From Leptolyngbyaceae cyanobacterium JSC-12 (GTDB taxonomy: Bacteria > Cyanobacteriota > Cyanobacteriia > Leptolyngbyales > Leptolyngbyaceae): a stretch of DNA of 64,000 bases. The position numbers and the translations under genes were made by a program. The notes under the pieces are model-generated. The model was not told where the DNA came from, did no database searches, and saw only the letters and a list, made by a program, of their open reading frames with translations. The DNA lies in NCBI GenBank assembly GCA_000309945.1, contig CM001633.1, positions 4,753,793 to 4,817,792 on the forward strand. Reading direction: 5' to 3'. Shown here one piece after another: positions 4,953-42,532 of this stretch. The stretch's first letter is position 1; each line of letters starts with the position of its first letter.

Positions 4953-5096
4953 ATGGCAATGCAGCTTAGTTTCTTTCTCAGCCTCTTCTCTAGTATCGGC
5001 GTGATTGCGCTCTGTGTGTGGCTTCTCCGTACACAAGATTTCCAGCCACAGGCTTCTACGGTTGCAATTCCAGTAAAGGTACGCGAGGATTCTTAG
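4953..5096 (+). CDS. 47-residue predicted membrane peptide
   Basis: This small ORF (ATG 4953, TAG 5094-5096) encodes one strongly hydrophobic segment ([20 protein letters not shown], about residues 5-24), followed by a polar tail ending KVREDS. It sits on the same strand 117 bp before the sigma-factor gene, so the two could share a transcript. The layout of a short N-terminus, a single TM helix and a basic/acidic tail is like small photosynthetic-complex subunits, but it matches none that I recognise. No strong ribosome binding site is visible. Confidence 0.4.
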
Positions 5097-5212
5097 CCTA
5101 TTCTGTTGCATCTTATCTTTCTTATTCTGACTCTTCACCTGTTTCGGTTCGTTTATCGGTGGCTTTCCTCCCCGCTATCCGGTTTTACTATCATTACTCC
5201 CTCACGAGCGTT

Positions 5213-6169
5213 ATGAAGACCTCCCAGACTTCATCGGATCTAGTTCGCACCTATCTACGTGAGATTGGGCGTGTTCCCCTGTTAACCCACGAGCAGGAAG
5301 TCGTATTTGGCAAGCAAGTTCAGCGTCTAACCCTTCTCAACGATACAAAAGACGGGCTAGCAAATCGGCTTGGGCGTACTCCCTCTTTTGAGGAATGGGC
5401 ACAGGCAAGTCAGCTTTCTAGCGCAGAGTTGAAGCAAGCAATTGCAGAAGGCGAATATGCCAAGCGCAAAATGGTGGAAGCAAATTTGCGGCTCGTTGTC
5501 TCGGTGGCGAAAAAGTATACCAAGCGCAATGTTGACTTGCTTGACCTGATTCAGGAAGGCACAATTGGCATGCAGCGTGGTGTTGAAAAGTTTGACCCCA
5601 CTAAAGGATATCGCTTCTCAACCTATGCTTACTGGTGGATTCGGCAAGCAATTACCCGTGCGATCGCTGAAAAAGGTCGGACTATTCGGCTACCTATCCA
5701 CATTACTGAAAAGCTAAATAAGATTAAGAAAGCTCAACGTCAACTCTCTCAGCGATTAGGTAGAGCCGCGACCGCCGCCGAACTGGCTCAAGAGTTAGAT
5801 TTGACTCCCAAGCAAGTTCGCGATTATCTGGAGCAAGCTCGTCAACCTTTGTCACTAGATTTACGGGTAGGTGACAATCAGGATACTGAACTGGGCGAAT
5901 TATTAGAAGATACGGGCACGTCTCCTGAAGAGTTCGCACTGCAATCTTCTCTTCGCACAGATCTGGAAAGCTTGATGGCAGACCTCACGCCACAACAGCG
6001 TCAGGTTCTAACCTTGCGGTTTGGGCTAGAGGATGGTCAAGCATTGACCCTGGCAAAAATCGGCGACCAGTTGAATATTAGCCGGGAACGAGTTCGCCAG
6101 ATTGAGCGTGAAGCATTGAGCAAATTGCGGAAACGGAAAGCCTCAATTGGAGAATACATCGCCAGCTAG
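5213..6169 (+). CDS. group 2 RNA polymerase sigma-70 factor
   Basis: This encodes a 318-residue RpoD-family sigma factor. The ATG at 5213 ([19 protein letters not shown]) is chosen because region 1.2 begins there; the in-frame extension to 5018 encodes nothing sigma-like and overlaps the upstream small ORF. Region 1.2 is '[21 protein letters not shown]', cited in pieces. Region 2 includes '[19 protein letters not shown]' and '[13 protein letters not shown]'. Region 4 ends with the helix-turn-helix '[18 protein letters not shown]'. The lack of region 1.1 and the short non-conserved spacer place it in group 2 (SigB/C/D/E type), the stress and light-responsive sigma factors of cyanobacteria. I could not assign the subgroup. 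Confidence 0.93.
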
Positions 6170-6235: not shown

Positions 6236-8479
6236 TTAAACAACCTGATAGACAAATCGCAGGGTTGCCCAAGCATTCACATCCAGACTATATGTATCGG
6301 GCTGATTTAGCGTAGCCAGTAGGTCAGAGGCTTGATGCAAATCTTGCAGAATGGCTTGCGTGATGTCTAACGGGTTAACGAGGAGCGAACCAGCGATCGC
6401 ACTGCTGCCTGATCGTTGTTGGGTTGCCAGTATCGTTGCGGTTTGACTAAAAGGAGTTCGGCTGAAGATTAAATAGGTTTCTGCAAAGCCAGTTGGTGCT
6501 TGAATTTGCCAATCTGCTCCGGTTACTGCGACTGGAATCGTAGATACTTGTTGAGGCGCGATCACCCAGCCTCGGGGTTCTGTCACAGGTGAAGAAGCCC
6601 CATCGGGTGGAACAGTAGGAACTGCTAGCCAGAGCAAATTGCTGGAACTGTCGAGTGAGATTGCTAGCGGGTAGACTGGCTGGGAACCATTGTTTTCCAC
6701 CCGATAGCGAATCCGGCTACCAACGGGAATTTGCAACAGCCCTGAGACAAGACCAGGTAATGGCTTTGTGGCTACAGATGCCACTGAGTCAACCTGTCCA
6801 GTTTCCTGCCAACTAAGAGTTTGGGTTTGGGGTGTTAGTTGTTCCAGGCTGGCGCGAATACGCAACCGTGAGGTTTGCTCATTCACTGTCAAGTTCAGCA
6901 GCTTGGTTGCTAATAATGTTTGCAATTTGGGCACCAGACGACGCACTGCCACTTTAATGGCTTCTCCGCCTTCGCCTGTAGTGTTCAAAATAGCATCATG
7001 TCCTGGCGAAAATAGCCCATAGCTAATTGAAGGTGTTAATCCTTGCGTTGCGGGTAAGGATGCCAGTTGGGTGGGAGGAGATGGCACCTTACTAAACACA
7101 TAGTCCGCAGGCTGTTCTCCCGCGATCGCAGACGAAATACGCGGCACTGCTGTAAACGCACTCACAGCATCTACCCGTTCAATCCGTTCAAGACTGCTAT
7201 CCAGCGCGATCGTTAGCCCGATATTACGCGGTAGCACACGCACCAATTCTTGTAACCACTGTCCCACCTGAACTGGCGGCAGAGTTGCCTCATCCAATCC
7301 TGGTTCACAACACACTTTCGCTTTTGCTGTGAGTCCTTCTCGACTCAAAACCTGTAACTTGGTTGCAACAGTAGATTTGCTGGAATCAGCACTAACAACC
7401 TGTACAAGCGAATTGACCCCGTACTGATCTAGCAGTGTAGCGGGTAATCCTCCCAGCCAGAGTTGTGCCGTTTTACCCGTTTCATCCACTGCGGTAATTG
7501 CACCAATCGTGCCAATCGGCAAATGAGGCAAAAAGTAGGGGGTAAGGTTTGGTTCCTGGCTGCGTTGACCATTAAGTTGGGGCTGTTGTTGGCTGGCAAT
7601 CTGTCCAATCTGCTGTGTCACCCGACCCAAAGTGATTCGTAAGGAGGACGGTGGGGTAGCTTCCCAAAGAGATTGGGTGAGTGCTGCGGTAAACAACCCA
7701 GCCGTAAATCGGCTCCAACGCATTTCTGTAGCGATCTGGTCAGGCATAGCAGCAGTCAGAACCAACCCTGGCAGGTGCCCATTTTTGCGATAAGTTGCTA
7801 GCTTTTCCCAGTCTAATTTTAGTTGAGTCAGCAATGTTTCCTGAAATGCCAGTTCTGCCCCGCTAGGTTGTGCGGTTGAGGGATTGGGGTAAGAGCGTAC
7901 CCGCAGATTCCCTTGCAGCAAATTACCCGGATACAGATAGCTCGTATCGAGGACAGTGGTAACTCGGTCTGTTTTCAGCGATCGCAGCAATAACCACAGC
8001 GTTTCCTGCAACACATCATTCACAATTGGAGTGTCACCTGTGGGAAACGGGTCTGCCGTGACTAGACTGGTTTGGATTGCATCTGGAGTGCGGCCTGCTA
8101 CTATACTGCCAAACCCGCTAAAATGCACTACTACCACATCACCCGATTTAGCTTGTTGAATTAGATGTTCTACAAAGGCGGTTTCGACCGCGTCACGAGT
8201 GGCTTGCCAGTCTGTCAGGGTTACGATATCCGTTGGTTGAAACCCAAATCGATGAATCAGCAATTCCCGCTGCAGTTCCACATCCGTCACACAGCCTTCC
8301 AGTCCAGAACCCAACGGGTATTGATTAATGCCAATTAACAGTGCCAGTTTACGAGCAGTGGATGCTGCTAGAACTTGATGATAGCGATCGCACAGCGTCC
8401 ATAGCCCAACATCACTGGCACCCCACGCCGCCAGCCCTAACCCAAGCTGCTGTAAAAATCTCCGTCGCGTTAACCCCAT
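6236..8479 (-). CDS. Tat-exported caspase-fold protein lacking the catalytic His-Cys pair (pseudo-orthocaspase)
   Basis: This 747-residue protein opens with a twin-arginine signal (MGLTRRRFLQQLGLGLAAW), so it is probably exported folded. Residues ~42-230 match the p20 region of cyanobacterial orthocaspases: 'KLALLIGINQYP', then 'VVVVHFSGFGS', then 'VTTVLDTSYLYPG'. In active members the second motif is SGHG and the third is D-x-C-H-S-G. Here Phe123 replaces the His and Ser180 replaces the Cys, so proteolysis is unlikely. The long C-terminal part (~250-747) has no motif I can name; it may be a beta-rich binding domain. It is convergent with the sigma-factor gene. Confidence 0.85.
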   Translation of the reverse strand: MGLTRRRFLQQLGLGLAAWGASDVGLWTLCDRYHQVLAASTARKLALLIGINQYPLGSGLEGCVTDVELQRELLIHRFGFQPTDIVTLTDWQATRDAVETAFVEHLIQQAKSGDVVVVHFSGFGSIVAGRTPDAIQTSLVTADPFPTGDTPIVNDVLQETLWLLLRSLKTDRVTTVLDTSYLYPGNLLQGNLRVRSYPNPSTAQPSGAELAFQETLLTQLKLDWEKLATYRKNGHLPGLVLTAAMPDQIATEMRWSRFTAGLFTAALTQSLWEATPPSSLRITLGRVTQQIGQIASQQQPQLNGQRSQEPNLTPYFLPHLPIGTIGAITAVDETGKTAQLWLGGLPATLLDQYGVNSLVQVVSADSSKSTVATKLQVLSREGLTAKAKVCCEPGLDEATLPPVQVGQWLQELVRVLPRNIGLTIALDSSLERIERVDAVSAFTAVPRISSAIAGEQPADYVFSKVPSPPTQLASLPATQGLTPSISYGLFSPGHDAILNTTGEGGEAIKVAVRRLVPKLQTLLATKLLNLTVNEQTSRLRIRASLEQLTPQTQTLSWQETGQVDSVASVATKPLPGLVSGLLQIPVGSRIRYRVENNGSQPVYPLAISLDSSSNLLWLAVPTVPPDGASSPVTEPRGWVIAPQQVSTIPVAVTGADWQIQAPTGFAETYLIFSRTPFSQTATILATQQRSGSSAIAGSLLVNPLDITQAILQDLHQASDLLATLNQPDTYSLDVNAWATLRFVYQVV

Positions 8480-8584
8480 ACTTCTATTCCAGCATCAAAC
8501 GGGAAGGGTGGGTAGTGGATAGTAACACAGTGGATAGTGAATAATGAGCACAACTTGCCATTCATTTTTTTCCTCACTGGACTC

Positions 8585-9040
8585 ATGAATTACTGGCTGA
8601 TGAAATCTGAACCTGATGTCTACAGCATTGCGGATTTGCAGCGCGATCGTGAAACGATATGGGATGGTGTGCGCAATTATCAGGCCCGAAATTTCCTCAA
8701 ATCCATGCAGCCAGGTGATCTTGCCTTTTTCTATCACTCCAATACCACTCCACCTGGCATTGCAGGACTTATGAAAGTTACCAAGCCGCAAGTCGTTGAC
8801 CCAACCCAGTTCGACTCCAAAAGCAAGTATTACGACCCTAAATCGACTCAAGCTGCGCCGCGCTGGCATACAGTGATAGTAGAATACGTGGAAATGTTCC
8901 CAGAATTGATTTCTTTAGAGACATTGCGGCAAACCTTCTCGCCAGATGATTTATGGGTGGTGCGGCAAGGCAATCGGCTCTCGGTAATGCCCGTACCGGA
9001 TGCGATCGCCCAGAAAATTCTGGAGATGAAACCAGATTGA
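8585..9040 (+). CDS. EVE domain protein
   Basis: This 151-residue protein is nearly all EVE domain, a PUA-like fold that binds modified bases in RNA or DNA. The start MNYWLMKSEPDVYSIADL is diagnostic, followed by 'WDGVRNYQARNFLKSM' and 'GDLAFFYHSN', as in thymocyte nuclear protein 1 homologues. The ATG at 8585 is preferred to 8537 because the family motif starts at once. The stop overlaps the likely TTG start of the next gene, suggesting translational coupling. The ligand is unknown. Confidence 0.9.
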   Translation: MNYWLMKSEPDVYSIADLQRDRETIWDGVRNYQARNFLKSMQPGDLAFFYHSNTTPPGIAGLMKVTKPQVVDPTQFDSKSKYYDPKSTQAAPRWHTVIVEYVEMFPELISLETLRQTFSPDDLWVVRQGNRLSVMPVPDAIAQKILEMKPD

Positions 9041-10605
9041 GTAAGTTAGGATTTGCTACTTTCGTATTGCTTTGTTTTTTGGGATTGAGTCTGGTTGGCG
9101 TGCTCCAGCACGAACTGTGGCGCGACGAAATGCAGGGCTGGCTGATTGCACGAGATAGTCACTCAATCACCGAATTGTTGCAAAATCAGCGCTATGAGAG
9201 TGGGCGATCGTTCTTCTCATTCTTGGGCTTTTTTATTGTCAGTCGGTTCAGCCGCAATCCTCTGGCAATGCAGTTATTCCACCTGGGAATTGCCGCCACA
9301 ACCGTTTATTTAATTGCTCGCTTTTCTCCCTTCACTCGCTGGCAAAAAATTGCACTGGCATTTGGCTACTACAGCTTTTTTGAGTATTCCTTAATTTGCC
9401 GAGATTATGCCCCAAGTGTGTTGTTAATTATTACTTTTTGCTTGTTATTTCGATTGCGCGATCGCACTCGCATCCCTCTTGCATGTTGTTTATTTTTAGT
9501 TGCGAATACTCATTTTTATGCATGGCTGATTGCAGTTGCACTCGGCTTCCCTCTCTTCCTTCAAGATGCCATCTTTACTCACAGCACAGCCGATTTACAG
9601 AACGCTCCAACAAATAATTACTCCCCACGCTCCATCTCCGATCGCCTTATACAGTGGGACTTTCTCATCAGTTTTAGTGTTTGGCTAGTCGGCATCGTGA
9701 TCGCAATTGGGTTCATGCTTCCTCCGGCCGATGGCACAATTACCCCACAAGCCGTTAAGTCCTTTAGTGTAAATCGTCTGGCTGCGACATTCGCGATCGT
9801 GTGGAAAAGCTATGCACCCATGCCTGGAATCACATTGCATTTTTGGAATACAAACATGCTGGATGATGGTACTGCGGCTATTTTATCTATCGGCTTAGTG
9901 CTGGCTGCGATCGCCTGGTTTATCCGCCAACCCGTTTTACTCATTGCTTATCTGTTTGGCACCTTTAGCATTTTGTACATTACCGGTGCAAAATTTCCTG
10001 GCACTATGCGGCACTGGGGATATTTATTTATCCTGTTCATTGCCTGCTTGTGGTTATCCCCCATGTTGCCAACGCAGTTCAACCAGACAAACGCCAACCC
10101 ACTCTGGCGCTGGAGCAATTGGCTCACCCGTCGCCGCATAACGATATTGAACGGGCTGCTGTTGATTCAACTATTGGCTGGTGGATTTGCCTTCACCTCA
10201 GATTTACAACATCCCTTTTCCCAGGCAAAAGCTGCTGCTCAATTCATCCGAACTCAAGCCTCAAAAGATTGCTTGCTGATTGGCGATCCGGATTGGGCAG
10301 CCCTGCCCATCTCCGGTTATCTGGATCAGCCCATCTACTACCCTGCTAGTAATGGGTTTGACACTTTTATCCAATTCAATACCCAACGGCGCGATCGCAG
10401 CCCTGCGGAAGTCGTTGACCAAATTAACGCAATTGCTACTACCCAATCTCCCACTACCCGATCTAAAGACATTTTGCTGATTCGCAACCAGCCCCTAGAT
10501 ACCGCTATAGCCAGAACTTTAAGTTCTTCTCCTGTGGAAATTGCTCGCTTTACAGGAGCGATCGTCCAAGATGAAAATTACTATTTATACCGATTGCAGC
10601 ACTAA
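9037..10605 (+). CDS. multi-spanning membrane protein, probable GT-C glycosyltransferase
   Basis: The frame is open from 8953. A TTG at 9037, inside the TTGA overlap with the EVE stop and preceded by GGAG, is the likeliest start, giving 522 residues. The N-terminus is hydrophobic, then comes 'LQHELWRDEMQGW', the acidic loop after TM1 typical of GT-C enzymes (ArnT/PMT type) that use lipid-linked sugars. Around ten further hydrophobic segments follow, then a ~150-residue soluble C-terminal domain. The donor and acceptor cannot be told. The start codon choice is uncertain. It is convergent with ridA across a strong hairpin. Confidence 0.75.
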   Translation: MSKLGFATFVLLCFLGLSLVGVLQHELWRDEMQGWLIARDSHSITELLQNQRYESGRSFFSFLGFFIVSRFSRNPLAMQLFHLGIAATTVYLIARFSPFTRWQKIALAFGYYSFFEYSLICRDYAPSVLLIITFCLLFRLRDRTRIPLACCLFLVANTHFYAWLIAVALGFPLFLQDAIFTHSTADLQNAPTNNYSPRSISDRLIQWDFLISFSVWLVGIVIAIGFMLPPADGTITPQAVKSFSVNRLAATFAIVWKSYAPMPGITLHFWNTNMLDDGTAAILSIGLVLAAIAWFIRQPVLLIAYLFGTFSILYITGAKFPGTMRHWGYLFILFIACLWLSPMLPTQFNQTNANPLWRWSNWLTRRRITILNGLLLIQLLAGGFAFTSDLQHPFSQAKAAAQFIRTQASKDCLLIGDPDWAALPISGYLDQPIYYPASNGFDTFIQFNTQRRDRSPAEVVDQINAIATTQSPTTRSKDILLIRNQPLDTAIARTLSSSPVEIARFTGAIVQDENYYLYRLQH

Positions 10606-31205: not shown

Positions 31206-33611
31206 ATGGCTAAGAACGTCATCATCATGATTGGCGACGGCATGGGCTGGGAAATGGCTCGTGCAGCGGCAATCTATCAACAAATACAGGCAGGTCAAAC
31301 AGGAACATCTCTGACCGATTTCTATACTTCTGGTGTGGGCACTGGACTCAGCTTCCAAAATCTAACTGGCTACACACTGGCTACCACCTATGGCACTACG
31401 ATCGCAGGTTCCAACGGTGTGTTTAACACAAGCAACGTCGCATTGACGGGTTCCGATTCTGTCACTGGTGCTAGTCCAGTCATTCCTGGCTTTCAATTCA
31501 ATCCTGCCTTTAACCCTGGAACAACAGGCAGCGGTGGGGCAACTGTTGCGAGCGGGGCAGTCGGAAATCTGGTGGGCTACGACCCAATTGAAGGCGGGTT
31601 CTTCCCTTGGGATGCTGCTTACTATGGTGGTCCAATTCCGGTTGGCTTTAATAAAGAATACATCAAGTACAGTTATCCCGATTCAGCAAACACGGCAACT
31701 ACGCTGTACACTGGTGTGAAGAGCTACAACAACGCGATCGGGGTCGATATTTTTGAGCAACCCCTGGAAACAATTCTGGCAACAGCAGCCCTAACTGGGC
31801 GTTCAACTGGACTGGTAACATCTGTTCCCATTGACCACGCCACCCCTGGCGCTGCAGCAGCAACGGTCAATCGTCGCGCTAAATATGACACCGAATTTCC
31901 TGGTCTGGATAGCATTCTGCAACAGGAGTTGCGAATTTATCAACCAACAGTATTGCTAGGAGGTGGACATCCCCTATCCAATACGTCCAGTCCCCTTCCC
32001 GAGGGCGTTGAACCTCCCCGTGATTATGGATTTGTCACCAAAGACACGTATGAGTATTTAGTGGCAAATCCCACGAATAATCGCTATGGTTATACCTTCT
32101 TAGAACGGGGTCCCAATGCCACTCAAACGTTGTTTCAAACGGCTGCAACGCTTGATCCTGATAGCGGCGATCGCCTCGTGGGTTTATATGGCGCACGGGG
32201 ACAAAATGGCAACCTGCCTGTCAGTTCTGCCAATGGTGACTACAGCACTACTGGGTTAGACATGTTCAGACTCTTCTCCACGCAGGGACTGAACCCCGAT
32301 ACCCAGCGTCCATTGTTGCCGGGAGAAACTGATGCCTCTTTCATTGCCCGGGAAGTCAATGAAAACCCCACACTGAAAGACTTAACGGAAGCGGCTCTCA
32401 ATATCTTGGGCAAGGATAAGGATGGCTTCTGGCTGATGGTAGAAGGTGGCGATATCGATTGGTCAGCCCACGATAACCACATCGACAACCTAATCGGTAC
32501 GATACTGGACTTTGATAAAGCAGTTGCTTCAACAATTAACTGGATTCAAGCAAATGGTGGTTGGGAAAATAACCTGCTGATTGTCACCGCAGACCATGAC
32601 CATTACTTAACCCTCAACCCGGATTTCCCGCTGTTGCTGCAAACCAGAGGTGCAGAAGCCTTAACCTTTGATCTCAACTCAACAGCCTCCGGACACTTCT
32701 GGGGATCGAATGCTGCTGTTAAGTTTGGTTGGGGGAACCACTCTAATCGTCCTGTCCCTGTTTACTATCAAGGGGCAGGTTCAGAAGTGTTGTCTGGCTT
32801 TGTGGGACAAGGCTTTGAGAGCTATGGTTTCCAAATTCCTGGGTTTGTCAATGGGGTAGATCAAAGCCACATCTATCAAACCATGTTGGGAGCTATCACA
32901 GGTTCAACTGAGAAGCCCAACATTACTGGTCCCCAAGTGGCAAATGCTTATTTCATTGCTGGACCTGGTGAAGATGCGGTTATTTACACAGGCGCGTTCG
33001 ATGACACCATCTACGGCGGAGTTGGGACAAACTACATTTATGCAAACAATGGCAACAATACTGTGTACGCTGAAAATGAAGATGATCTAGTGTACACAGG
33101 TACTGGCAATGACACTATCATCGTGAATGCAGGGAATAATACTGTATTCGCTGGTGCTGGCAATGACTACATCCGCGCTGGGGCAGGCGATGATGTGATT
33201 TATGCAGGTGCTGGTAACGATGACATTGTGGTTGGCGATGGCAATAACTACGTGGATGCTGGTAGTGGTAATGATGTGATCTTCACCGGTGCTGGAAATG
33301 ACACCATTTTGGGCGGTGCCGGAGATGACCTGATCTATGCGGGCACTGGCAATAACTTCATTAATGCTGGAACTGGCAATGACACGGTAGTTGTGATGCC
33401 AGGTGGGATCAATACATTTGTGTTAAGTGCAGGTGCGGGTTCAGTTACTATTTTCAACTTTGGTGCGGGTGATAAGTTCCAGTTAGGTTCTGGTTTAGCA
33501 GTCGCAGATATCACATTAACCCGCAGCGGTAATGATACGTTAGTTAGCAAAGGTGATGATCTACTGGCAACTCTGACTTGGACAACCCTGAATAGCTTAC
33601 CGATCGCCTAA
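31206..33611 (+). CDS. secreted alkaline phosphatase with C-terminal RTX repeats
   Basis: This 801-residue protein would cleave phosphomonoesters outside the cell. The PhoA-type metal sites are all present: Asp in 'IIMIGDGMGWEMA', the Ser/Thr nucleophile motif in 'YPDSANTATTLYTGVKS', Glu/Asp/His in 'MVEGGDIDWSAHDNH', 'VTADHDHY', and a His in 'GNHSNRPVPVY'. From ~585 there are about ten glycine-rich RTX nonapeptides ('GAGNDYI', 'GAGDDVIYAGAGNDDI'), followed by a ~70-residue terminal domain. There is no N-terminal signal peptide, so type I secretion is expected. GGGAG precedes the ATG. Two Fur-box-like sites lie upstream. Confidence 0.9.
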   Translation: MAKNVIIMIGDGMGWEMARAAAIYQQIQAGQTGTSLTDFYTSGVGTGLSFQNLTGYTLATTYGTTIAGSNGVFNTSNVALTGSDSVTGASPVIPGFQFNPAFNPGTTGSGGATVASGAVGNLVGYDPIEGGFFPWDAAYYGGPIPVGFNKEYIKYSYPDSANTATTLYTGVKSYNNAIGVDIFEQPLETILATAALTGRSTGLVTSVPIDHATPGAAAATVNRRAKYDTEFPGLDSILQQELRIYQPTVLLGGGHPLSNTSSPLPEGVEPPRDYGFVTKDTYEYLVANPTNNRYGYTFLERGPNATQTLFQTAATLDPDSGDRLVGLYGARGQNGNLPVSSANGDYSTTGLDMFRLFSTQGLNPDTQRPLLPGETDASFIAREVNENPTLKDLTEAALNILGKDKDGFWLMVEGGDIDWSAHDNHIDNLIGTILDFDKAVASTINWIQANGGWENNLLIVTADHDHYLTLNPDFPLLLQTRGAEALTFDLNSTASGHFWGSNAAVKFGWGNHSNRPVPVYYQGAGSEVLSGFVGQGFESYGFQIPGFVNGVDQSHIYQTMLGAITGSTEKPNITGPQVANAYFIAGPGEDAVIYTGAFDDTIYGGVGTNYIYANNGNNTVYAENEDDLVYTGTGNDTIIVNAGNNTVFAGAGNDYIRAGAGDDVIYAGAGNDDIVVGDGNNYVDAGSGNDVIFTGAGNDTILGGAGDDLIYAGTGNNFINAGTGNDTVVVMPGGINTFVLSAGAGSVTIFNFGAGDKFQLGSGLAVADITLTRSGNDTLVSKGDDLLATLTWTTLNSLPIA

Positions 33612-34634
33612 CTCAGCGTAATAGAGCTTTAGGTTGTTCACAGATTTGGCGATCGCTTGATGCATTCGCAACGCTTGGCATTTGCGCTCCGCGATCGCCT
33701 TTCCTGATCTAACGGGAAACACCTAGCTTACTTGAAGTTGCTGCAAACTGATCGCCTTCTTCAAACGGAGATAGCTTCACAGAATCTTGATGTTTGATGT
33801 GGTGTGAGCAACTTAGTTCTCTGACATGGCAATGATAGGCTGCAATACAAAAGGATAAGAACTAGACAACCAGCACTTTAGCTTTAAATCGCGACCAACT
33901 CGAAAACTGGAGGATTCTCTGAGAAAAACCTACGGGTTTGGACATACGTAAGATTTACATAGAGCATCGATTGTTGACTATCTAGCAATTATCTATAGAA
34001 CGATCACTTGATCAATGATAAAACCGTTTGCCCTGCGATCGCGATTTCTCCCTCATGCGATCGCACTGCCCAATTGAATACTTAAGCTAATGTTTAGTTA
34101 TTCGTTGTAGTTACTCACTCCAGGGACAAACAAGTATTAACTGATGTTAAAATTCACACCTCAAAATTCTTCGCACATCAGAGAGCGGAGTGTTTTCTAA
34201 AAATCAGTACATCCTTAAGAAAGGTCAAATCCAAATTAAGAAATAGGGATTCAATAGAATACTCTTTTTGCTAAGAAGAGATCCTTCTTTCCAATAGCTT
34301 TCTAGTTTTATTGAATAATTATTCAATAAAACTAGAAAGTTTGCAACCCAGCATCAGCAGGCGTTTGAAGCTGAGATTCAATTGTTTTCAGCTCGAAACT
34401 TCATCCAAGTTTTCTGAAGGAAGAGCCTCTTGACAGCCAGCATTATTTTATATTTTGTCCAAGAAAATTAAATTTATTTCCCTTCAACTGCGATTAGTCT
34501 CGCCTTAACGTTGACATGGTTTCCTTAAGTAGAATCTCTCTGCTTAGTTGGAGAAAATTTGAACACGACCAGAGTGTCATACCGACTTAAGCAAACAGTT
34601 TTGAGCATCATTTAGTAAAGTCTTTGGAGCGCAA
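33612..34634. other. 1-kb intergenic region
   Basis: No ORF with coding character fills this gap. It holds several HIP1-like GCGATCGC sites (near 33650, 33700 and 34045), a 42-bp perfect palindrome (34298-34339), and the promoter and GGAG ribosome-binding site of the next gene. 'TTAAC' and 'TTAAA' near 34137-34150 vaguely recall Pho half-sites but are wrongly spaced. Its size is unusual for a cyanobacterial spacer. Confidence 0.6.
34298..34339. repeat. 42-bp perfect, loop-free palindrome
   Basis: The sequence reads identically on both strands from CTTTCTAG at 34298 to CTAGAAAG at 34339, with AATT at the centre. It is AT-rich and far longer than chance would give. It could extrude a cruciform, form a very long RNA hairpin, or be a binding site for a dimeric protein. 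It lies 300 bp before the second phosphatase gene. Confidence 0.9.
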
Positions 34635-37600
34635 ATGCCAAGCAACAACCATGTCATTTTCTTCCATCCAGATGGAACAAGTCCCTCTCACTTTGCGGCT
34701 GCAAGGTTTGTAGAATACGGTCCCGATGGACGGTTAAATTGGGACAAACTTGACCGAGCCGCTGTTTACTTAGGACACATGCAAGACCAGTTGGGTGGTA
34801 CATCCAATGCAGGAGCTGTTAGCCATGCGACTGGTGCAAAGGTCTATGCAGAATCGTTTGGCTTAAATCAAGACAATTCCCCAGTCACCTCTCTGGCTGG
34901 AACAGTTGGCAAGACTATTGTGCAAGAAGCAGTTGAAGCTCGGAAAGTAACTGCTTTAGTGCAATCGGGTGCTATTTTTGAACCGGGAACCGCAGCATTT
35001 GTGGCTCAAGTGCCGGAAATTACTGTGGATGGTCGGCGCATCCCACCCCGCCAACGAACTGCTGAGATTGCAAGGCAAGTTGTCCTGTCTGGTGTTGACT
35101 TTATCCTAGGTGGTGGAGAAGTAACCCTCCTCCCTGTCGGAACAGCAGGTGTTCATGGAACAGCGGCCGAGTACGATGCTATCAGCACTAACCCTCTCTA
35201 GCGTCCTTCCGAGAACTTGATTGATTTGGCAAGGAGTTTGGGCTACACCGTTGTTTACACTGAGCAAGAACTTCGCGATCTCTTAGATCCAGCAAAGTAT
35301 GCTACGCCTCCTACCAAGGTATTTGGGGTGTTTGCTCCCATTCACACTTTCAACGATCGCCCTGAAGAAGTACTGGCAGAACGCAACTTGCCTCTGTATT
35401 TCCAGACAGCTCCTTCCATCGATGTCATGCTACAAGTGACCCAGCAATTGATGGAACGGCACCCTAATTTCATTAATGGTTCTATTGCCATTGTGGAAGA
35501 AGAAGGAACTGATAACTTTGGGAATAATAACAACGCGGCTGGTACGATTGAAGCCATGCGTCGGTCGGATCGGGCAATTGGTGTTGCCTTAGATTTCATC
35601 AACCGCCATCCCAATACGCTGCTGTTGACTGCTGCTGATAGTGATGCGGGTGGCTTGCAAGTCGTTGATCGTAGTAACCCGAACGCTCCTGTAGGCACAA
35701 TCAACAACAACCCCACGACCACTGCTCGCAACGTGCCCATGGATGGGCGAACTGGAGCTAACACTCTGCCCTTCATTGCTCGACCTGATGCCAATGGCGA
35801 TGTGTTCCCCTTTGCTGTGGCATGGGCTGGCACACCAGACTACAGCGGCTCAATTGTGGCAAAGGCGCACGGATTAAATGCTAACAAGCTACCAACCACT
35901 GCCGATAACACGGTGATATACGAGTTGATGTACGAAACCCTGTTTGGTGTGGAACTGCAACCTCGAATTCGAGAGCCGATTGCTCAACCTCCCAGAGCAA
36001 CGAGGGATACCGGGAACGTCATCTTCATTCACCCAGATGGTACCAGCCCTTCTCATTTCATGGCATTGCGGAACATCGACAAAGGACCAGACGGTCGCCT
36101 TAACTGGGACATGATGACCAATGCAGGGGTTTACCTGGGACACATGGAGAACCAGTTGACCGGAACCTCTAATGCAGGTGCAGTCACTCACGCAACCGGG
36201 GTTAAAACCTTTAATGAGTCCTTTGGTTTGGAAGAAACCAATGAACTGATTGTTCCAGCATCGGGACAATTGGGGGCAACGATCCTGGATCAAGCGCTTG
36301 CAGAAGGCAAATTTACCATATTGCTGCAATCCGGGCATCTGGCAGAACCTGGAACCGCCGCCTTTGCAGCAAAAACCAGTAACCGAGTTGGTAACAACAT
36401 CCGTGCTCGTGATAAGTTCGCTGAGATCATCGAACAGGTCATTCGTTCTGGCACTGATGTCATCATGGGTGGTGGCGAATTGTATATGTTACCTGTAGGC
36501 ACCACTGGCTTTCACGTCACTGCTGCGCTGGATGCTTCTGAAACTCGTCCTGAGCGTCGCCCCTCAATTAACCTAATTGAGCTGGCACAGTCTTTGGGGT
36601 ACACCGTGGTGTATACCGAGGAGCAAATGAATGCAGCAGTCAATAGTGCGAACCCTCCTGCCAAATTGCTAGGTGTGTTTGCTGCTATCCACACCTTCGA
36701 TGACAGAACTGAAGAAGCATTGGGTCTAAACACTGCTAATCCCAGAGATTTGTATGTGCCGACGGCTCCTACCATCGCAGAAATGCTAGAAGCGTCGTTG
36801 AAGTTAGCAAACCGCAGCGGCAAAAACTTCTTCGCCGTCGTTGAAGAAGAAGGCACCGATAACTTTGCCAATAACAACAATGCCGTTGGAACAATCGAAG
36901 CCATGCGGCGATCGGATGCAGCGATCGGCATCGCAATGAACTACGTCAATACCGTAGATCCCAACACCCTGGTGATCACTGCAGCAGACAGTGATGCAGG
37001 CGGTTTGCAAGTATTTCAATTCGCACCCTACACACGTCCATCGGGTAACTTTGATGTTAGCAATCCCATCTTGGCAGACAGTCAACCCGAAGTTCCATTC
37101 GTCAACGTCAACCCCACGACAACTGCTAGCACCCGCGCTTTCTTAGATGGTGAAAAAGGCAGTACAGCAACAGAAGGTTTCCCCTGGGTACCATTTGCGT
37201 CTCAAGATAGCATCGATGGTCCGATGGGCAACTTTACGATTAACTGGGTGGGAACTCCTGACTTCCCCGGCAGCATTGTCTCCAAAGCTTACGGGATGAA
37301 TGCTGACTTGTTACCCTCCACCCTGGACAATACCGAGATTTATCGCATCATGTACCGTACCTTGTTTGGACGTGATTCATTGCCCAATTACGCTAGCGGC
37401 GGCCGAGGCAATGACACACTGACAGGTGGCCCTGGAAATGACGTGCTAGTTGGCTTCGCTGGTGACGATTTGCTAGTAGGTTTGGCTGGTAACGATTCCC
37501 TCGTTGGCGGTCTAGGCAACGATACACTGATTGGTGGTCCTGGCTACAATGTGCTCACAGGTGGTGACGGGAATGATCAATTTGTGATTCAACCTGAAAG

Positions 37601-37808
37601 CCGTGATTGGATTGTGGACTTCCGAGTGGGAGAAGACAAAATTAGGCTATCAGGTCTGACCTTTAGTCAAATTCAAATCACAGATGGAACAGGCAACTAT
37701 ATGGGTAATGCTGTAGCAAATCTCGTTGGAGTTCAGGGACAAGATCCATTGATTGTGTTTGCTGGTTTGCAACCGAGCGCAATCAGTAGCAGCGATTTTA
37801 TCGTGTAG
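34635..37808 (+). pseudogene. tandem alkaline-phosphatase-like RTX protein interrupted by an amber codon
   Basis: Start ATG 34635 (GGAG upstream); one frame to 37808 apart from TAG at 35199-35201. The second half continues in the same frame ([14 protein letters not shown]) and aligns with [14 protein letters not shown] in the second domain, so this is one 1057-codon gene with a nonsense mutation, or one that is read through. There are two homologous AP-like domains (~1-455 and ~456-915), then RTX repeats ('[16 protein letters not shown]') and a secretion-type C-terminus. In both domains metal-binding His positions look replaced: 'VEEEGTDNF' followed by NNNN where a His is expected, and 'TAADSDAGG' in place of TADH. 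Activity is therefore uncertain even if the full protein is made. Confidence 0.8.
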
Positions 37809-37865
37809 AAAACTCGCTCCTATTATAGGTAGCGGAGTAGGTCTTGTGCCTATTCCACGTGACTC

Positions 37866-37904
37866 AAGGCTATCACAACTCTGATTGGAGTTTGTGATAG
37901 CCTT
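37866..37904 (+). terminator. intrinsic terminator after the tandem phosphatase gene
   Basis: AAGGCTATCACAACTC (37866-37881) pairs with GAGTTTGTGATAGCCTT (37888-37904) with one bulged base; the loop is 6 nt. It is followed by TCATTT. It sits 57 bp after the stop codon. Confidence 0.8.
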
Positions 37905-37973
37905 TCATTTGAATTAAAGAGCATTGAAATGCTAGTTTTTTAGATACATAGACCAGATGCATAAATTGTTACA

Positions 37974-37992
37974 AACGTTGATAATCATTGTG
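37974..37992 (+). promoter_or_regulatory. weaker Fur-box-like site before the GDPD/phytase gene
   Basis: The core TGATAATCATTGTG (37979-37992) matches 12 of 14 bases of the right part of the Fur consensus, but the left five bases match poorly (about 13 of 19 overall). It is ~315 bp before the start of the next gene. By itself it is weak; it is noted because the first phosphatase gene of the cluster has two strong sites. Confidence 0.35.
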
Positions 37993-38305
37993 GTTTAGAT
38001 AACGCTTGACTGAGTCCAGAAAATGATACTCTATCGATTGCATTTTGAATGCACCAGAATTTTTTCAAGAAGTTCAGGAAAGTCTTTATCTTGATGAAAA
38101 CACTCTAGGTTGAGATTGAATGCCTGATTGCGCATTCAGTTGAATTGGAGTGATGAACTTCTTATAGACATTGCTTCTTGTGCTCAAGGGGTATTTCAAT
38201 GGGCCTCCATTTCAGTATGAAGATTCCATGCCACAGCAATGTCTATTTTGCCTATGAACCATACAACCACTATCTACCGGGTTAGCCCCATCATCACTTA
38301 ATACT

Positions 38306-41300
38306 ATGGCAGATACCGTCATTCTCAAAGGTTTTGCAGTGCTTCCCGCCGACACCTTTGCGGCAGGACCACCATCCGGTAATTTCATCACAGGCAGCAC
38401 TAATGGACGCACGATTCCGTTTTCGAGCCAGCCTGTGCAAGGGTTTAGTGCTGTGCAGTTTGCCGGAAACAACACCTTCTGGTTTATGCCCGACAATGGC
38501 TTTGGCGCTAAGAATAATAGTGCTGATTATCTGTTACGCGTTTATCGTGTTGACCCCAACTTCCGGGGCATCGAAGCGGGCGATGGCAGCGTTAACGTTC
38601 TAAGCTTCATTCAACTGGCTGACCCAGACAAACGGGTGCCGTTCCAAATCATCAATCAAACGACGAGCGATCGCTTACTAACTGGAGGCGACTTTGACCT
38701 AGAATCCTTCGTGATTGCCAAAGATGGCACCCTCTGGTTTGGGGAAGAATTTGGACCCTTCTTGCTTAACACTGATGCTACTGGCAAAGTTCTAAGTGCC
38801 CCAATTGCAACCCCCAACTATTTCAACATTCCCACATTAAACGGGAAGCCACCGCTAGTCATTGGGCACCGGGGAGCCAGTGGCGAACTACCAGAACACA
38901 CAATCGAAGCCTATCGATTGGCGATTCTGCGTGGTGCCGACTTCATTGAACCTGATCTGGTTGCCACTAAAGATGGCGTATTGATTGCTCGCCACGAACC
39001 AACTCTGGGCACAACCACAGATGTTGCTAGCCGACCTGAATTTGCAAACCGTCGTCGTAGCGGGATCATTGATGGGGTACTGTATGAAAACGAATTCTTT
39101 GCATCCGACTTCACCCTGGCAGAAATCAAAACGCTACGTGCAATTATGCCCCAGGGTTATCGTACAAATGCTTTCGATGGTGTGTTCCAGATCCCGACTC
39201 TGGAAGACGTAATCAACTTGGTAAAACAGGTTGAGGCAGATACGGGTAAGAAAATTGGGATCTATCCTGAAACCAAACATCCCACTTACCACGATCAACT
39301 GGGGTTGTCTCTAGAAGAACCCCTGCTAGAAACTCTGGAACGAACTGGATTCACCGATCCAACTCGTGTCTTTATTCAGTCGTTTGAAGTTTCCAACCTG
39401 AAAAAACTCAGCACCAAGACGAATATTCCACTGGTGCAATTGTTAGATGCTTTTGATGTAGATTACAACACGGGTGAGTTGCTGTATCTGGATGTTAATG
39501 CTCGTCCTTACGATTTCACTGTGAATGGTGACACTCGCACCTATGCTGATTTGCAAACACCAGAAGGGTTAGCTGAAATTGCCACTTATGCGGCTGGCAT
39601 TGGACCTTGGAAACGAATGATTGTGTCTGTCCGAAACGTAGACAATAACAATGACGGGCAACCAGATGACTTGAACAATGATGGGGTAATTAATGATGCT
39701 GATCGCGTCACTTTGCCTCCCTCCAGCCTAATTGCCAATGCCCACAAGCAAGGCTTATTTGTCCATGCTTACACCTTCCGCAACGAAGGACGCTTCCTGG
39801 CATCCAACTACAACAACAATCCGGAACTGGAATACCGCCAGTTTATCCAACTTGGAGTAGACGGCTATTTCACTGATTTTCCTGGCACTGGCGATCTGGT
39901 GCGCGATCAGATTACTGGCAGTTTTGTACGATCGCCCCAAGATCCGGGTGTACTCAGCAAGCCCCGATTCAATACTCTCAACGGTCAAACACCGCTCGTA
40001 TTAGGACATCGGGGAGCCAGCGGCGATCGCCCTGAACATACCCTGGCGGCTTACAAGAAAGCAATCGCAGATGGTGCTGACTTCATTGAACCCGATTTAG
40101 TCGTCACCAAAGATGGGGTGTTAATTGCTCGCCACGAACCGATGTTAGGAGTGGTGCAATTAAATGCTGACGGCACAATCCGCCGTGATGCGAATGGTAA
40201 TCCTGTGTTGAATACCACCGACACCAGCACGGATGTATATTTGCGTCCCGAATTTGCTAATCGCCTGACTGTGAAGCGGTTGGATGGCAACCTTGTGGGT
40301 GGCTGGTTTGCGGAAGACTTTACCCTGGCAGAGGTAAAGCAACTGAACGCGATCGAGCGACTACCAGCCCTGCGCAGTACTGCTTTTGACAAAGATGGCT
40401 TGAAAGTGCCAACTCTGGCAGAAGTGATTGCTCTTGTGAAGGAGGTGGAAGCAAGCACCGGACGCAAGATCGGCATCTACCCCGAAACGAAACATCCTAC
40501 CTTCTTCCAGGATCAAGGATATAACACCAGCCAGTTGCTGATCGATACCCTGACTGCCAACAACTTTACTGACCCCAGCCGAATTTTTATCCAGTCATTT
40601 GAAGTCTCCAACCTGAAAGCGTTGAATAATACCATCATGCCTGCAGCAGGTGTGAATATTCCGCTGATTCAGCTGTTTGGCGGTTCTGGCAGACCCTACG
40701 ATTTCGTCGTTAGTGGTGACCCGCGCACCTATACCGATCTCTCCACCCCAGCCGGTTTGGCAGAGATTGCTACCTATGCCGCTGGAATTGGCCCCAACAA
40801 GCAGCGGATCGTGCCTCTGTTTACTGTTGATCGCAACGGAGATGGACAACCGGATGATTTGAATGGGGATGGGGTAATCAGCGATGGCGATCGCGTTACA
40901 GGAACTCCCACTACCCTGGTTCAGGACGCGCATCGAGCAGGTTTGCTGGTACATGTTTATACCTTGCGGAACGAGTCCTTCTTCCTGCCCGCTAGCTACA
41001 ATGGCGATCCAAACGCTGAATATCGACAGTTGATCGATTTGGGTGTGGATGGCTTCTTTACAGATTTCTCTCGCACTGGGCACTCCGTTATTGTGAATGA
41101 TTATCTGGCAGGAACCGGATTTATCGGAGGTGGACAGCAGTACTATGGTGATCTGATTGTTTCTAACCTGGGTGGGTCTAGAGGCTATGAGGGAATGGCA
41201 ATCAATCCTGATAAAAGTCGCATCTACCCTCTGCTGGAAGGAACAGTCATTGGAGACCCGGCAGGTGCCCTGCGAATTTATGAATTTGATCCGGCGAGAG

Positions 41301-42532
41301 GTCAGTTTACTGGGCTGGTAGGCTACTACAAAATGGAAAACCCCAATCACGCGATCGGGGACTTTGCTGTGATCAATGACAATGAGTATCTCGTGATTGA
41401 GCGGGATGGCGGTCAGGCGGCGGCAGCTCAGTTCAAGAAGATTTTCAAAGTGGATCTTTCCAGACGGGATGCCAGTGGCTTTGTGCAAAAGGTAGAAGTT
41501 GCTAACCTGCTGAATATTCAAGATCCAGACGACCTGAATCGGGATGGTAGCACTATCTACCGGATGCCATTTGTCACGATTGAAAATGTGTTGGTGCTAG
41601 ATAACAAAACCATTCTGGTGGCGAATGACAACAACTATCCATTCTCGATTGGGCGTCCTCCTGCGATTGATGACAATGAAATTGTTGTGCTGGAATTGAG
41701 CCAGTCACTGAATCTCGATCCGCGTGGTGGCAACCGCACTTTTCTCATCGATAAAGGGGAACGTGGCGTAGAAATCACCAATTTCCAAACCGTTGGAACG
41801 GGTGTGTTTCCTGGAACAACTGCGATCGCAGAAGCAGATGTCCTTAAATTTCGAGGAGTAGGGCTGACTGCGACCAATCTGTTGCTCACTCAACAGGGGG
41901 CTGATCTGCTCGTCTCATTTGAAGGCGACACCACCACTGTGTTGTTGAAGAATACTCGACTGGAAACAATCGACAATTTGACCCAGGCAACTGGAGCCAG
42001 CACCAATCTGGGCAATATCCTGTTTGATGGCGACACGGTGATTCGGGATAGCTTTGATGTCTTCAATGCTGATTGGAACTTTGGGCAAGTTTTCAACCGC
42101 AACACCACAACTTTCTTAAACGACCTGGATAACGACATTCGTGGATTTGATAATTCCAATGACGTGATCAATGGTCAGGGTGGAAATGACATTCTGCGGG
42201 GTCTGAGTGGTAGCGATACCTTGCGCGGCGGCGCAGGCAACGACACCTTAATTGGTGGTATTGGCAGCGATGTTTTGGTTGGCAACAGTGGCGCAGATGT
42301 TTTCGTGCTGGAAGCAGGCGGTGGTACCGATATCATCCGCGATTTCCGGTTGGCTGAGGGCGATCGCATTGGTCTAAGCGGCTTAACCTTCGGCGCACTC
42401 ACCATTGCTCAGGGTTCTGGCAATAATGCCAGCGATACCCTAATCCGCCTCACAAGTACCAACGAGGTATTGGCAATTGTAGCAGGAGTCCAAGCTAACA
42501 CCCTTACCAGCAGTGCCTTTGTCACTGTGTAA
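38306..42532 (+). CDS. secreted phytase-like esterase split by two GDPD domains, with RTX repeats
   Basis: This 1408-residue protein begins with an esterase-like phytase domain ('FSAVQFAGNNTFWFMPDNGF', 'GEEFGPFLLNTDATGK'). At ~182 it is interrupted by a glycerophosphodiester phosphodiesterase domain ('VIGHRGASGELPEHT', 'DGVLIARHEPTL') and at ~561 by a second ('VLGHRGASGDRPEHT'). The phytase domain resumes at ~951 ('GYEGMAINPDKSRIYPLLEG', 'LRIYEFDP'). Each GDPD carries a DxDxDG calcium loop ('NNNDGQPDDLNNDGV', 'RNGDGQPDDLNGDGV'). The C-terminus has a few RTX repeats and the same 'RLSGLTF/GLSGLTF' terminal domain as the gene before. It likely releases phosphate from organic esters outside the cell. 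Confidence 0.88.
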   Translation: MADTVILKGFAVLPADTFAAGPPSGNFITGSTNGRTIPFSSQPVQGFSAVQFAGNNTFWFMPDNGFGAKNNSADYLLRVYRVDPNFRGIEAGDGSVNVLSFIQLADPDKRVPFQIINQTTSDRLLTGGDFDLESFVIAKDGTLWFGEEFGPFLLNTDATGKVLSAPIATPNYFNIPTLNGKPPLVIGHRGASGELPEHTIEAYRLAILRGADFIEPDLVATKDGVLIARHEPTLGTTTDVASRPEFANRRRSGIIDGVLYENEFFASDFTLAEIKTLRAIMPQGYRTNAFDGVFQIPTLEDVINLVKQVEADTGKKIGIYPETKHPTYHDQLGLSLEEPLLETLERTGFTDPTRVFIQSFEVSNLKKLSTKTNIPLVQLLDAFDVDYNTGELLYLDVNARPYDFTVNGDTRTYADLQTPEGLAEIATYAAGIGPWKRMIVSVRNVDNNNDGQPDDLNNDGVINDADRVTLPPSSLIANAHKQGLFVHAYTFRNEGRFLASNYNNNPELEYRQFIQLGVDGYFTDFPGTGDLVRDQITGSFVRSPQDPGVLSKPRFNTLNGQTPLVLGHRGASGDRPEHTLAAYKKAIADGADFIEPDLVVTKDGVLIARHEPMLGVVQLNADGTIRRDANGNPVLNTTDTSTDVYLRPEFANRLTVKRLDGNLVGGWFAEDFTLAEVKQLNAIERLPALRSTAFDKDGLKVPTLAEVIALVKEVEASTGRKIGIYPETKHPTFFQDQGYNTSQLLIDTLTANNFTDPSRIFIQSFEVSNLKALNNTIMPAAGVNIPLIQLFGGSGRPYDFVVSGDPRTYTDLSTPAGLAEIATYAAGIGPNKQRIVPLFTVDRNGDGQPDDLNGDGVISDGDRVTGTPTTLVQDAHRAGLLVHVYTLRNESFFLPASYNGDPNAEYRQLIDLGVDGFFTDFSRTGHSVIVNDYLAGTGFIGGGQQYYGDLIVSNLGGSRGYEGMAINPDKSRIYPLLEGTVIGDPAGALRIYEFDPARGQFTGLVGYYKMENPNHAIGDFAVINDNEYLVIERDGGQAAAAQFKKIFKVDLSRRDASGFVQKVEVANLLNIQDPDDLNRDGSTIYRMPFVTIENVLVLDNKTILVANDNNYPFSIGRPPAIDDNEIVVLELSQSLNLDPRGGNRTFLIDKGERGVEITNFQTVGTGVFPGTTAIAEADVLKFRGVGLTATNLLLTQQGADLLVSFEGDTTTVLLKNTRLETIDNLTQATGASTNLGNILFDGDTVIRDSFDVFNADWNFGQVFNRNTTTFLNDLDNDIRGFDNSNDVINGQGGNDILRGLSGSDTLRGGAGNDTLIGGIGSDVLVGNSGADVFVLEAGGGTDIIRDFRLAEGDRIGLSGLTFGALTIAQGSGNNASDTLIRLTSTNEVLAIVAGVQANTLTSSAFVTV

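What the first reader, a model, noticed from the sequence alone, without database searches (positions are those of the whole stretch)
6236..8479. Tat-exported pseudo-orthocaspase with Phe-Ser in place of His-Cys
The caspase-fold motifs are well preserved, but the catalytic His is Phe123 and the Cys is Ser180. Pseudo-orthocaspases with other substitutions are known from cyanobacteria; retention of a long conserved protein with a Tat signal suggests a non-proteolytic role outside the cytoplasm.
Basis: partly seen in the sequence, partly recalled or inferred. Interest (0 to 1): 0.5.

Follow-up and report, generated by a model that had tools for sequence, protein, structure and literature searches.

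The report
Exported dead caspase-like protein of cyanobacteria
This is a cyanobacterial protein built like a caspase protease but missing its cutting residues; it belongs to an already described, widespread group of such dead enzymes, and comparing its relatives shows a frequent gene neighbour (ATP sulfurylase) and a conserved patch outside the old active site that could guide tests of what it does.

Summary
In detail: window 6236-8479 (-) is an intact 747-aa gene with a Peptidase_C14 domain (E 4e-16), a TRRRFL Tat-type N-terminus, Phe123 at the catalytic His and Ser180 at the catalytic Cys. It falls in the known cyanobacterial pseudo-orthocaspases, whose Tat-like N-termini, conserved pocket Asp residues and rare FS variants are in print. 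The Phe-Ser pair itself is not conserved: among 112 rows without the full dyad, 70 are YS, 17 YG, 7 FS, 6 FG, 12 other. With the dyad columns left out these rows still split from 34 His-Cys rows of the same build (110 against 34). Two additions: an RIERVD-type motif in the C-terminal half, in 100 of 112 pseudo rows and 0 of 34 His-Cys rows; and ATP sulfurylase (sat) upstream on the same strand in 58 of 89 genomes, a link printed earlier for one Nodularia genome and absent in this one. In 6 of 10 genomes picked for few candidates it is the only C14 match, so it need not regulate an active caspase. Best reading: an exported, non-cleaving binding protein; function unproven.

The parts
6236..8479 (-). 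whole gene, Tat-type pseudo-orthocaspase, 747 aa (P0001)
   Evidence: orthologues
8366..8479 (-). Tat-type N-terminus, residues 1-38 (TRRRFL; V36-L37-A38 where most relatives have A-L-A)
   Evidence: cleavage site inferred
7568..8353 (-). Peptidase_C14 (caspase) domain, residues 43-304
8111..8113 (-). F123 codon at the place of the catalytic His
7940..7942 (-). S180 codon at the place of the catalytic Cys
8282..8284 (-). D66, putative S1-pocket Asp (TbMCA2 Asp95 by motif), 109 of 109 rows
7946..7948 (-). D178, putative S1-pocket Asp (TbMCA2 Asp211 by alignment end point), 109 of 109 rows
7154..7192 (-). LERIERVDAVSAF, residues 430-442, conserved in the pseudo clade only
6452..6724 (-). DUF4384-like region, residues 586-676 (below cut-off here, E 0.071; matched at E<=0.1 in 19 of 23 pseudo members)

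Best explanation
A catalytically dead caspase-fold protein, exported folded by the Tat route to the periplasm or thylakoid lumen, that works by binding and not by cutting. The p20 domain keeps the acidic pocket (D66, S121, D178) that in active relatives is thought to hold a basic P1 residue, so it probably still captures Arg/Lys-bearing peptides or protein tails without cleaving them. The C-terminal half (RIERVD-type motif, Y487, K526, W737, DUF4384-like region) carries a pseudo-specific conserved surface that probably binds a partner or dimerises. Shown by sequence: gene, homology, loss of the dyad, conservation pattern, RR motif, existence in genomes with no other C14 match. Inferred: export, inactivity, peptide capture, partner binding.
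For: Rows lacking the full dyad form one side of a full-length tree against 34 His-Cys rows, SH-aLRT 100, dyad columns left out (110 of 112 rows used). D66, S121, D178, R195 are 109 of 109 in pseudo rows, while the commonest residue at 182, 183, 184 and 189, 94-100% in His-Cys rows, is at 18-49% in pseudo rows. E434, D437 and Y487 are 99%, K526 98%, W737 96% in pseudo rows; the commonest residue there in His-Cys rows is at 32-59%. The pattern R[IV]E[RK][VI]D is in 100 of 112 pseudo rows, 0 of 34 His-Cys rows and 0 of 20 further paralogue loci. RR in 111 of 112. Sole C14 match in 6 of 10 genomes. Low dN/dS.
Against: No activity, localisation or binding data for this protein. Pocket residues may persist for fold reasons, since they are also fixed in the His-Cys rows. 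The Tat HMM for the window protein is below its cut-off. Ser180 could in principle act, though it varies with Gly and Cys. 12 of 112 rows lack the exact motif pattern, one of them a fragment. The p20-only tree with three distant outgroups did not give either group as one side of a branch (2 changes each). Structure models are too poor to place pocket or motif.
Confidence: 0.5

Rival explanations
1. It works together with ATP sulfurylase in sulfate activation or sulfur-linked oxidative-stress signalling; the gene pair is a functional unit.
For: sat lies upstream on the same strand in 58 of 89 genomes with a match, 56 of them within 428 bp of the end of the sat domain hit, in 16 of 26 family codes; 0 of the 15 His-Cys paralogues tested (of 34) lie near sat, one of the 15 having no sat hit. 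A sulfur link was proposed for Nodularia from such a locus (PMC4933709; passages).
Against: ATP sulfurylase is a cytosolic enzyme (general knowledge) and this protein is apparently exported. The link is absent in 31 of 89 genomes, this one included (3.2 Mb apart on the contig), where the gene persists; the trait needs 20 changes on the tree. Shared expression or ancestral order would explain it.
Confidence: 0.15
2. It is a decoy or dimerisation partner of an active orthocaspase (cFLIP-like); the own genome has a full-length His-Cys Tat-type paralogue (744-aa frame, L001).
For: Full-length homology between the two groups, E 2e-130; both carry RR and C14; DUF4384 in 7 of 7 His-Cys rows scanned.
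Against: In 6 of 10 genomes, chosen because few candidates had been seen, the pseudo-enzyme is the only C14 match, so the role cannot always need an active partner; PMC6426788 argues the same.
Confidence: 0.1
3. A thylakoid/photosynthesis or pro-death stress factor, as proposed for YS pseudo-orthocaspases and for SyOC of Synechocystis.
For: PMC6426788 (sections read) argues from distribution and light regulation. PMC7889975 (abstract): deletion of SyOC gives higher tolerance to oxidative stress. Compatible with the best explanation as its physiological outcome.
Against: Correlative; families f18 and f19 show no match, though taken as photosynthetic from their place in the class (inference); six of 42 order-level genomes have no match at all.
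Confidence: 0.2
4. A hidden active protease that uses C63 and H119 or S180.
For: C63 and H119 are conserved; changing the AtMC9 Cys29 / TbMCA2 Cys92 position lowers activity in metacaspases (PMC5756287 passage).
Against: Both are as conserved in rows with a normal dyad; C63 is Ala/Ser in 9 of 109 and H119 is replaced in 5 of 109; the loop after position 180 is relaxed.
Confidence: 0.05

Closest known systems
Cyanobacterial YS pseudo-orthocaspases (Klemencic et al. 2019, PMC6426788)
   Same: C14 domain, lost His-Cys dyad, Tat-like N-terminus, two conserved pocket Asp, wide distribution in cyanobacteria
   Different: Phe-Ser and not Tyr-Ser; that paper reports no other domain in the commonest YS proteins, whereas a DUF4384-like region is matched here in 19 of 23 members at E<=0.1. 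DUF4384 in four pseudo-orthocaspases is already tabulated in PMC8283722
SyOC, sll0148 of Synechocystis PCC 6803 (PMC7889975)
   Same: cyanobacterial pseudo-orthocaspase; Tyr-Gly, a pair also common here (17 of 112)
   Different: not compared by sequence, as no named record was at hand; shared clade is inferred
M32 (NSP_23610) of Nodularia spumigena (PMC4933709)
   Same: caspase homologue beside sulfate adenylyltransferase and methylthioadenosine phosphorylase (passages)
   Different: its sequence and dyad were not seen here; the window's genome lacks the sat link
Tat-type His-Cys orthocaspase paralogue, L001 in the same genome
   Same: RR N-terminus, C14, DUF4384, group aligns full length
   Different: intact His-Cys dyad and following loop, no RIERVD-type motif, not near sat

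Membership tests
Cyanobacterial (YS-type) pseudo-orthocaspase | Peptidase_C14 / p20 domain | tested here: met
   E 4.1e-16; metacaspase structures matched by sequence
Cyanobacterial (YS-type) pseudo-orthocaspase | no His-Cys dyad | tested here: met
   F123, S180
Cyanobacterial (YS-type) pseudo-orthocaspase | Tyr-Ser in place of His-Cys (commonest, not obligatory for pseudo-orthocaspases in the source paper) | tested here: not met
   Phe-Ser; but nested among rows of which 70 of 112 are YS
Cyanobacterial (YS-type) pseudo-orthocaspase | Tat-like N-terminal extension with RR and A-x-A | tested here: met
   RR met (TRRRFL); A-x-A only approximately (V-L-A); HMM below cut-off
Cyanobacterial (YS-type) pseudo-orthocaspase | two conserved pocket Asp | tested here: met
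   D66 and D178, 109 of 109
Cyanobacterial (YS-type) pseudo-orthocaspase | no p10 domain | tested here: inconclusive
   the Pfam match reaches 225 of 233 profile positions and the clade profile aligns to 7qp0 over chain 89-378 of 392, so a p10-like part is not excluded
Active orthocaspase or metacaspase | His-Cys dyad | tested here: not met
Active orthocaspase or metacaspase | cleavage after Arg/Lys | not testable with these tools
   needs a protease assay
Tat substrate | Tat-dependent export | not testable with these tools
   motif only

The most novel reading that the evidence does not exclude
The clade is a phylum-wide family of exported receptors in which a caspase fold was converted from cutting to reading basic peptides, with a new C-terminal signalling surface, often encoded with ATP sulfurylase and so tied to sulfur or redox state.
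Probability: 0.15. Interest if true: 0.6.

Novelty: new member of a known kind. Interest (0 to 1): 0.32.

Why it matters
Pseudo-orthocaspases are widespread in cyanobacteria, yet their role is unknown. The Phe-Ser pair itself is minor drift inside a known clade. What is useful is the pattern around it: pocket kept, loop after the lost Cys relaxed, a pseudo-specific C-terminal motif, and a sat neighbour in many families. These give specific residues and a candidate pathway to test in a laboratory strain.

Tried and rejected
Pseudogene or chance ORF: rejected by full-length open orthologues and low dN/dS, with the caveat that dS is saturated. FS as a conserved functional pair: rejected; 11 changes at position 123 and 14 at position 180 on the tree. 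Alternative C63/H119 pair: disfavoured. cFLIP-like partner role as the general role: disfavoured. Other neighbours: the next most frequent families reach 4 of 21 neighbourhoods, the window's included, against 9 of 21 for sat, so were not pursued. The p20 tree rooted on three other C14 proteins of the own genome: outgroups on very long branches, and neither outgroup, pseudo nor His-Cys rows came out as one side (2 changes each), so no root is claimed. Structure: both models too weak for residues; the full-length one was not searched. The viral scan gave one distant His-Cys caspase-like protein. 'None keeps both His and Cys' is no finding, since the 112 rows were defined that way; the tree is the test.

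Full report
Observation. The ORF at 6236-8479 (-) is real and exact: 747 aa, HFSG-F123-G and LDT-S180-Y, with TRRRFL at the N-terminus. Pfam Peptidase_C14 matches residues 43-304 at E 4.1e-16; DUF4384 is a sub-threshold match at 586-676, E 0.071 (one search gives the same scores one residue lower because its query lacked the first codon). The Tat HMM is sub-threshold (E 0.097). By sequence the nearest solved structures are metacaspases (with a profile of 23 relatives the best is AtMC9, E 1e-20).

Genome and relatives. The window lies in a single-contig 5.5-Mb genome with five C14 matches. The one named close record is a Leptolyngbyaceae metagenome genome, 72% identical. A match at E <= 0.001 exists in 36 of 42 order-level genomes, at least three of these (G030, G036, G038) being only weak partial matches, and at E <= 1e-20 in 89 of 244 genomes sampled from the phylum. 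The listed genomes without a match are of families f18 and f19; 135 more were not listed.

Two sister groups. I aligned 146 rows. Thirty-four have His-Cys; the other 112 are, by that definition, pseudo rows: YS 70, YG 17, FS 7, FG 6, CS 4, LS 3, YC 2, HG 2, LG 1. With the two dyad columns left out, a full-length tree separates 110 pseudo rows from 34 His-Cys rows with SH-aLRT 100 (quick method, no outside root, several long branches). The p20-only tree with three distant C14 proteins did not give either group as one side (2 changes each). Twenty further loci fetched later read His-Cys, except L183, which reads His-Pro. Profiles of 23 pseudo and 7 His-Cys proteins align end to end at E 2e-130, and the own genome carries one of each (L001). 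In the window's closest relatives the pair is FS (L006, L009, L010) or LS (L011); position 123 needs 11 and position 180 needs 14 changes on the tree. So Phe-Ser is drift within a clade that has given up the dyad, not a new pair.

Where the constraint lies. In pseudo rows D66, S121, D178 and R195 are 109 of 109, as they are in the 34 His-Cys rows. C63, D66, S121 and D178 correspond, by my reading of motif and alignment, to TbMCA2 Cys92, Asp95, Ser156 and Asp211, described as substrate-binding or activity residues (PMC4357240 passage; alignments). That the two Asp stay in pseudo-orthocaspases is already in print (PMC6426788 section 17). The commonest residues at 182-184 and 189, 94-100% in His-Cys rows, are at 18-49% in pseudo rows. 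In the C-terminal half the pseudo rows share an L-x-R-I-E-R-V-D-A-x-S-A-F stretch (430-442; E434 and D437 99%), D459 96%, Y487 99%, K526 98% and W737 96%, which are not conserved in His-Cys rows. The pattern R[IV]E[RK][VI]D is in 100 of 112 pseudo rows (one of the 12 misses is the fragment L056), 0 of 34 His-Cys rows and none of the 20 further loci; L184 has a look-alike LERIDRV, and 7 of the 20 loci do not align as far as the motif. DUF4384 is matched at E <= 0.1 in 19 of 23 pseudo and 7 of 7 His-Cys members scanned. A text search for the motif letters found no orthocaspase paper holding them among the 10 of 21 listed; figures and supplements were not seen.

Gene neighbourhood. In 9 of 21 neighbourhoods (20 chosen plus the window) the gene upstream on the same strand is ATP sulfurylase; the next families reach 4 of 21 (named from PF01747 hits). 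Over the phylum sample, 58 of 89 genomes have sat upstream on the same strand, 56 within 428 bp of the domain hit and two at 2.1 and 2.4 kb, in 16 of 26 family codes; 31 do not, this genome among them. In the order sample G024, G026, G027, G028, G035 and G039 of 42 also show it (read by eye). Of 15 His-Cys paralogues tested (of 34), 0 are near sat, one genome having no sat hit. On the tree the trait needs 20 changes over 106 rows, 62 of them linked, so it was lost, or gained, many times. For Nodularia spumigena this neighbourhood and a sulfur connection were published in 2016 (PMC4933709; passages read). The listing (20 of 28 papers shown) held no title on a phylum-wide link; that is a limited search of open papers.

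Function. In 6 of 10 genomes, picked because earlier searches showed few candidates, the pseudo-enzyme is the only C14 match at E <= 0.001, so it does not always serve an active orthocaspase. The best reading is an exported non-cleaving binding protein; peptide capture and partner binding are inferences. SyOC deletion in Synechocystis raises tolerance to oxidative stress (PMC7889975, abstract), which may or may not apply here.

Verdict. Correct observation; a member of a known kind; Phe-Ser of low importance by itself; the C-terminal motif and the wider sat link are the useful additions.

Noticed in passing
L183 (G131:C3:2675300-2677000): A C14 paralogue in a 413-aa frame with His kept and Pro at the Cys position (DTPYSGG), about 3 kb from a full-length His-Cys paralogue (L122): apparently an independent dead copy.
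   Followed up: no
L175:857-1813: A contig of the viral collection encodes a 318-aa caspase-like protein with an intact His-Cys dyad and a hydrophobic N-terminal stretch; the neighbouring ORF looks HNH-like (recalled motif, not searched).
   Followed up: partly
window 31206-42532: Run of large proteins with RTX calcium-binding repeats: two alkaline-phosphatase-like proteins and a GDPD plus phytase-like protein.
   Followed up: no
window 5018-6169 and 8537-10605: Flanking genes are a sigma-70 factor, an EVE-domain protein and a 550-aa frame with no Pfam match at E<=1e-5; parts of this order recur in the nearest relatives L155-L158.
   Followed up: partly
L155-L158 (G012, G013, G011, G015): None of these neighbourhoods of the window protein's four nearest relatives has sat beside the pseudo gene; G013 and G011 show no sat hit at all.
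   Followed up: partly
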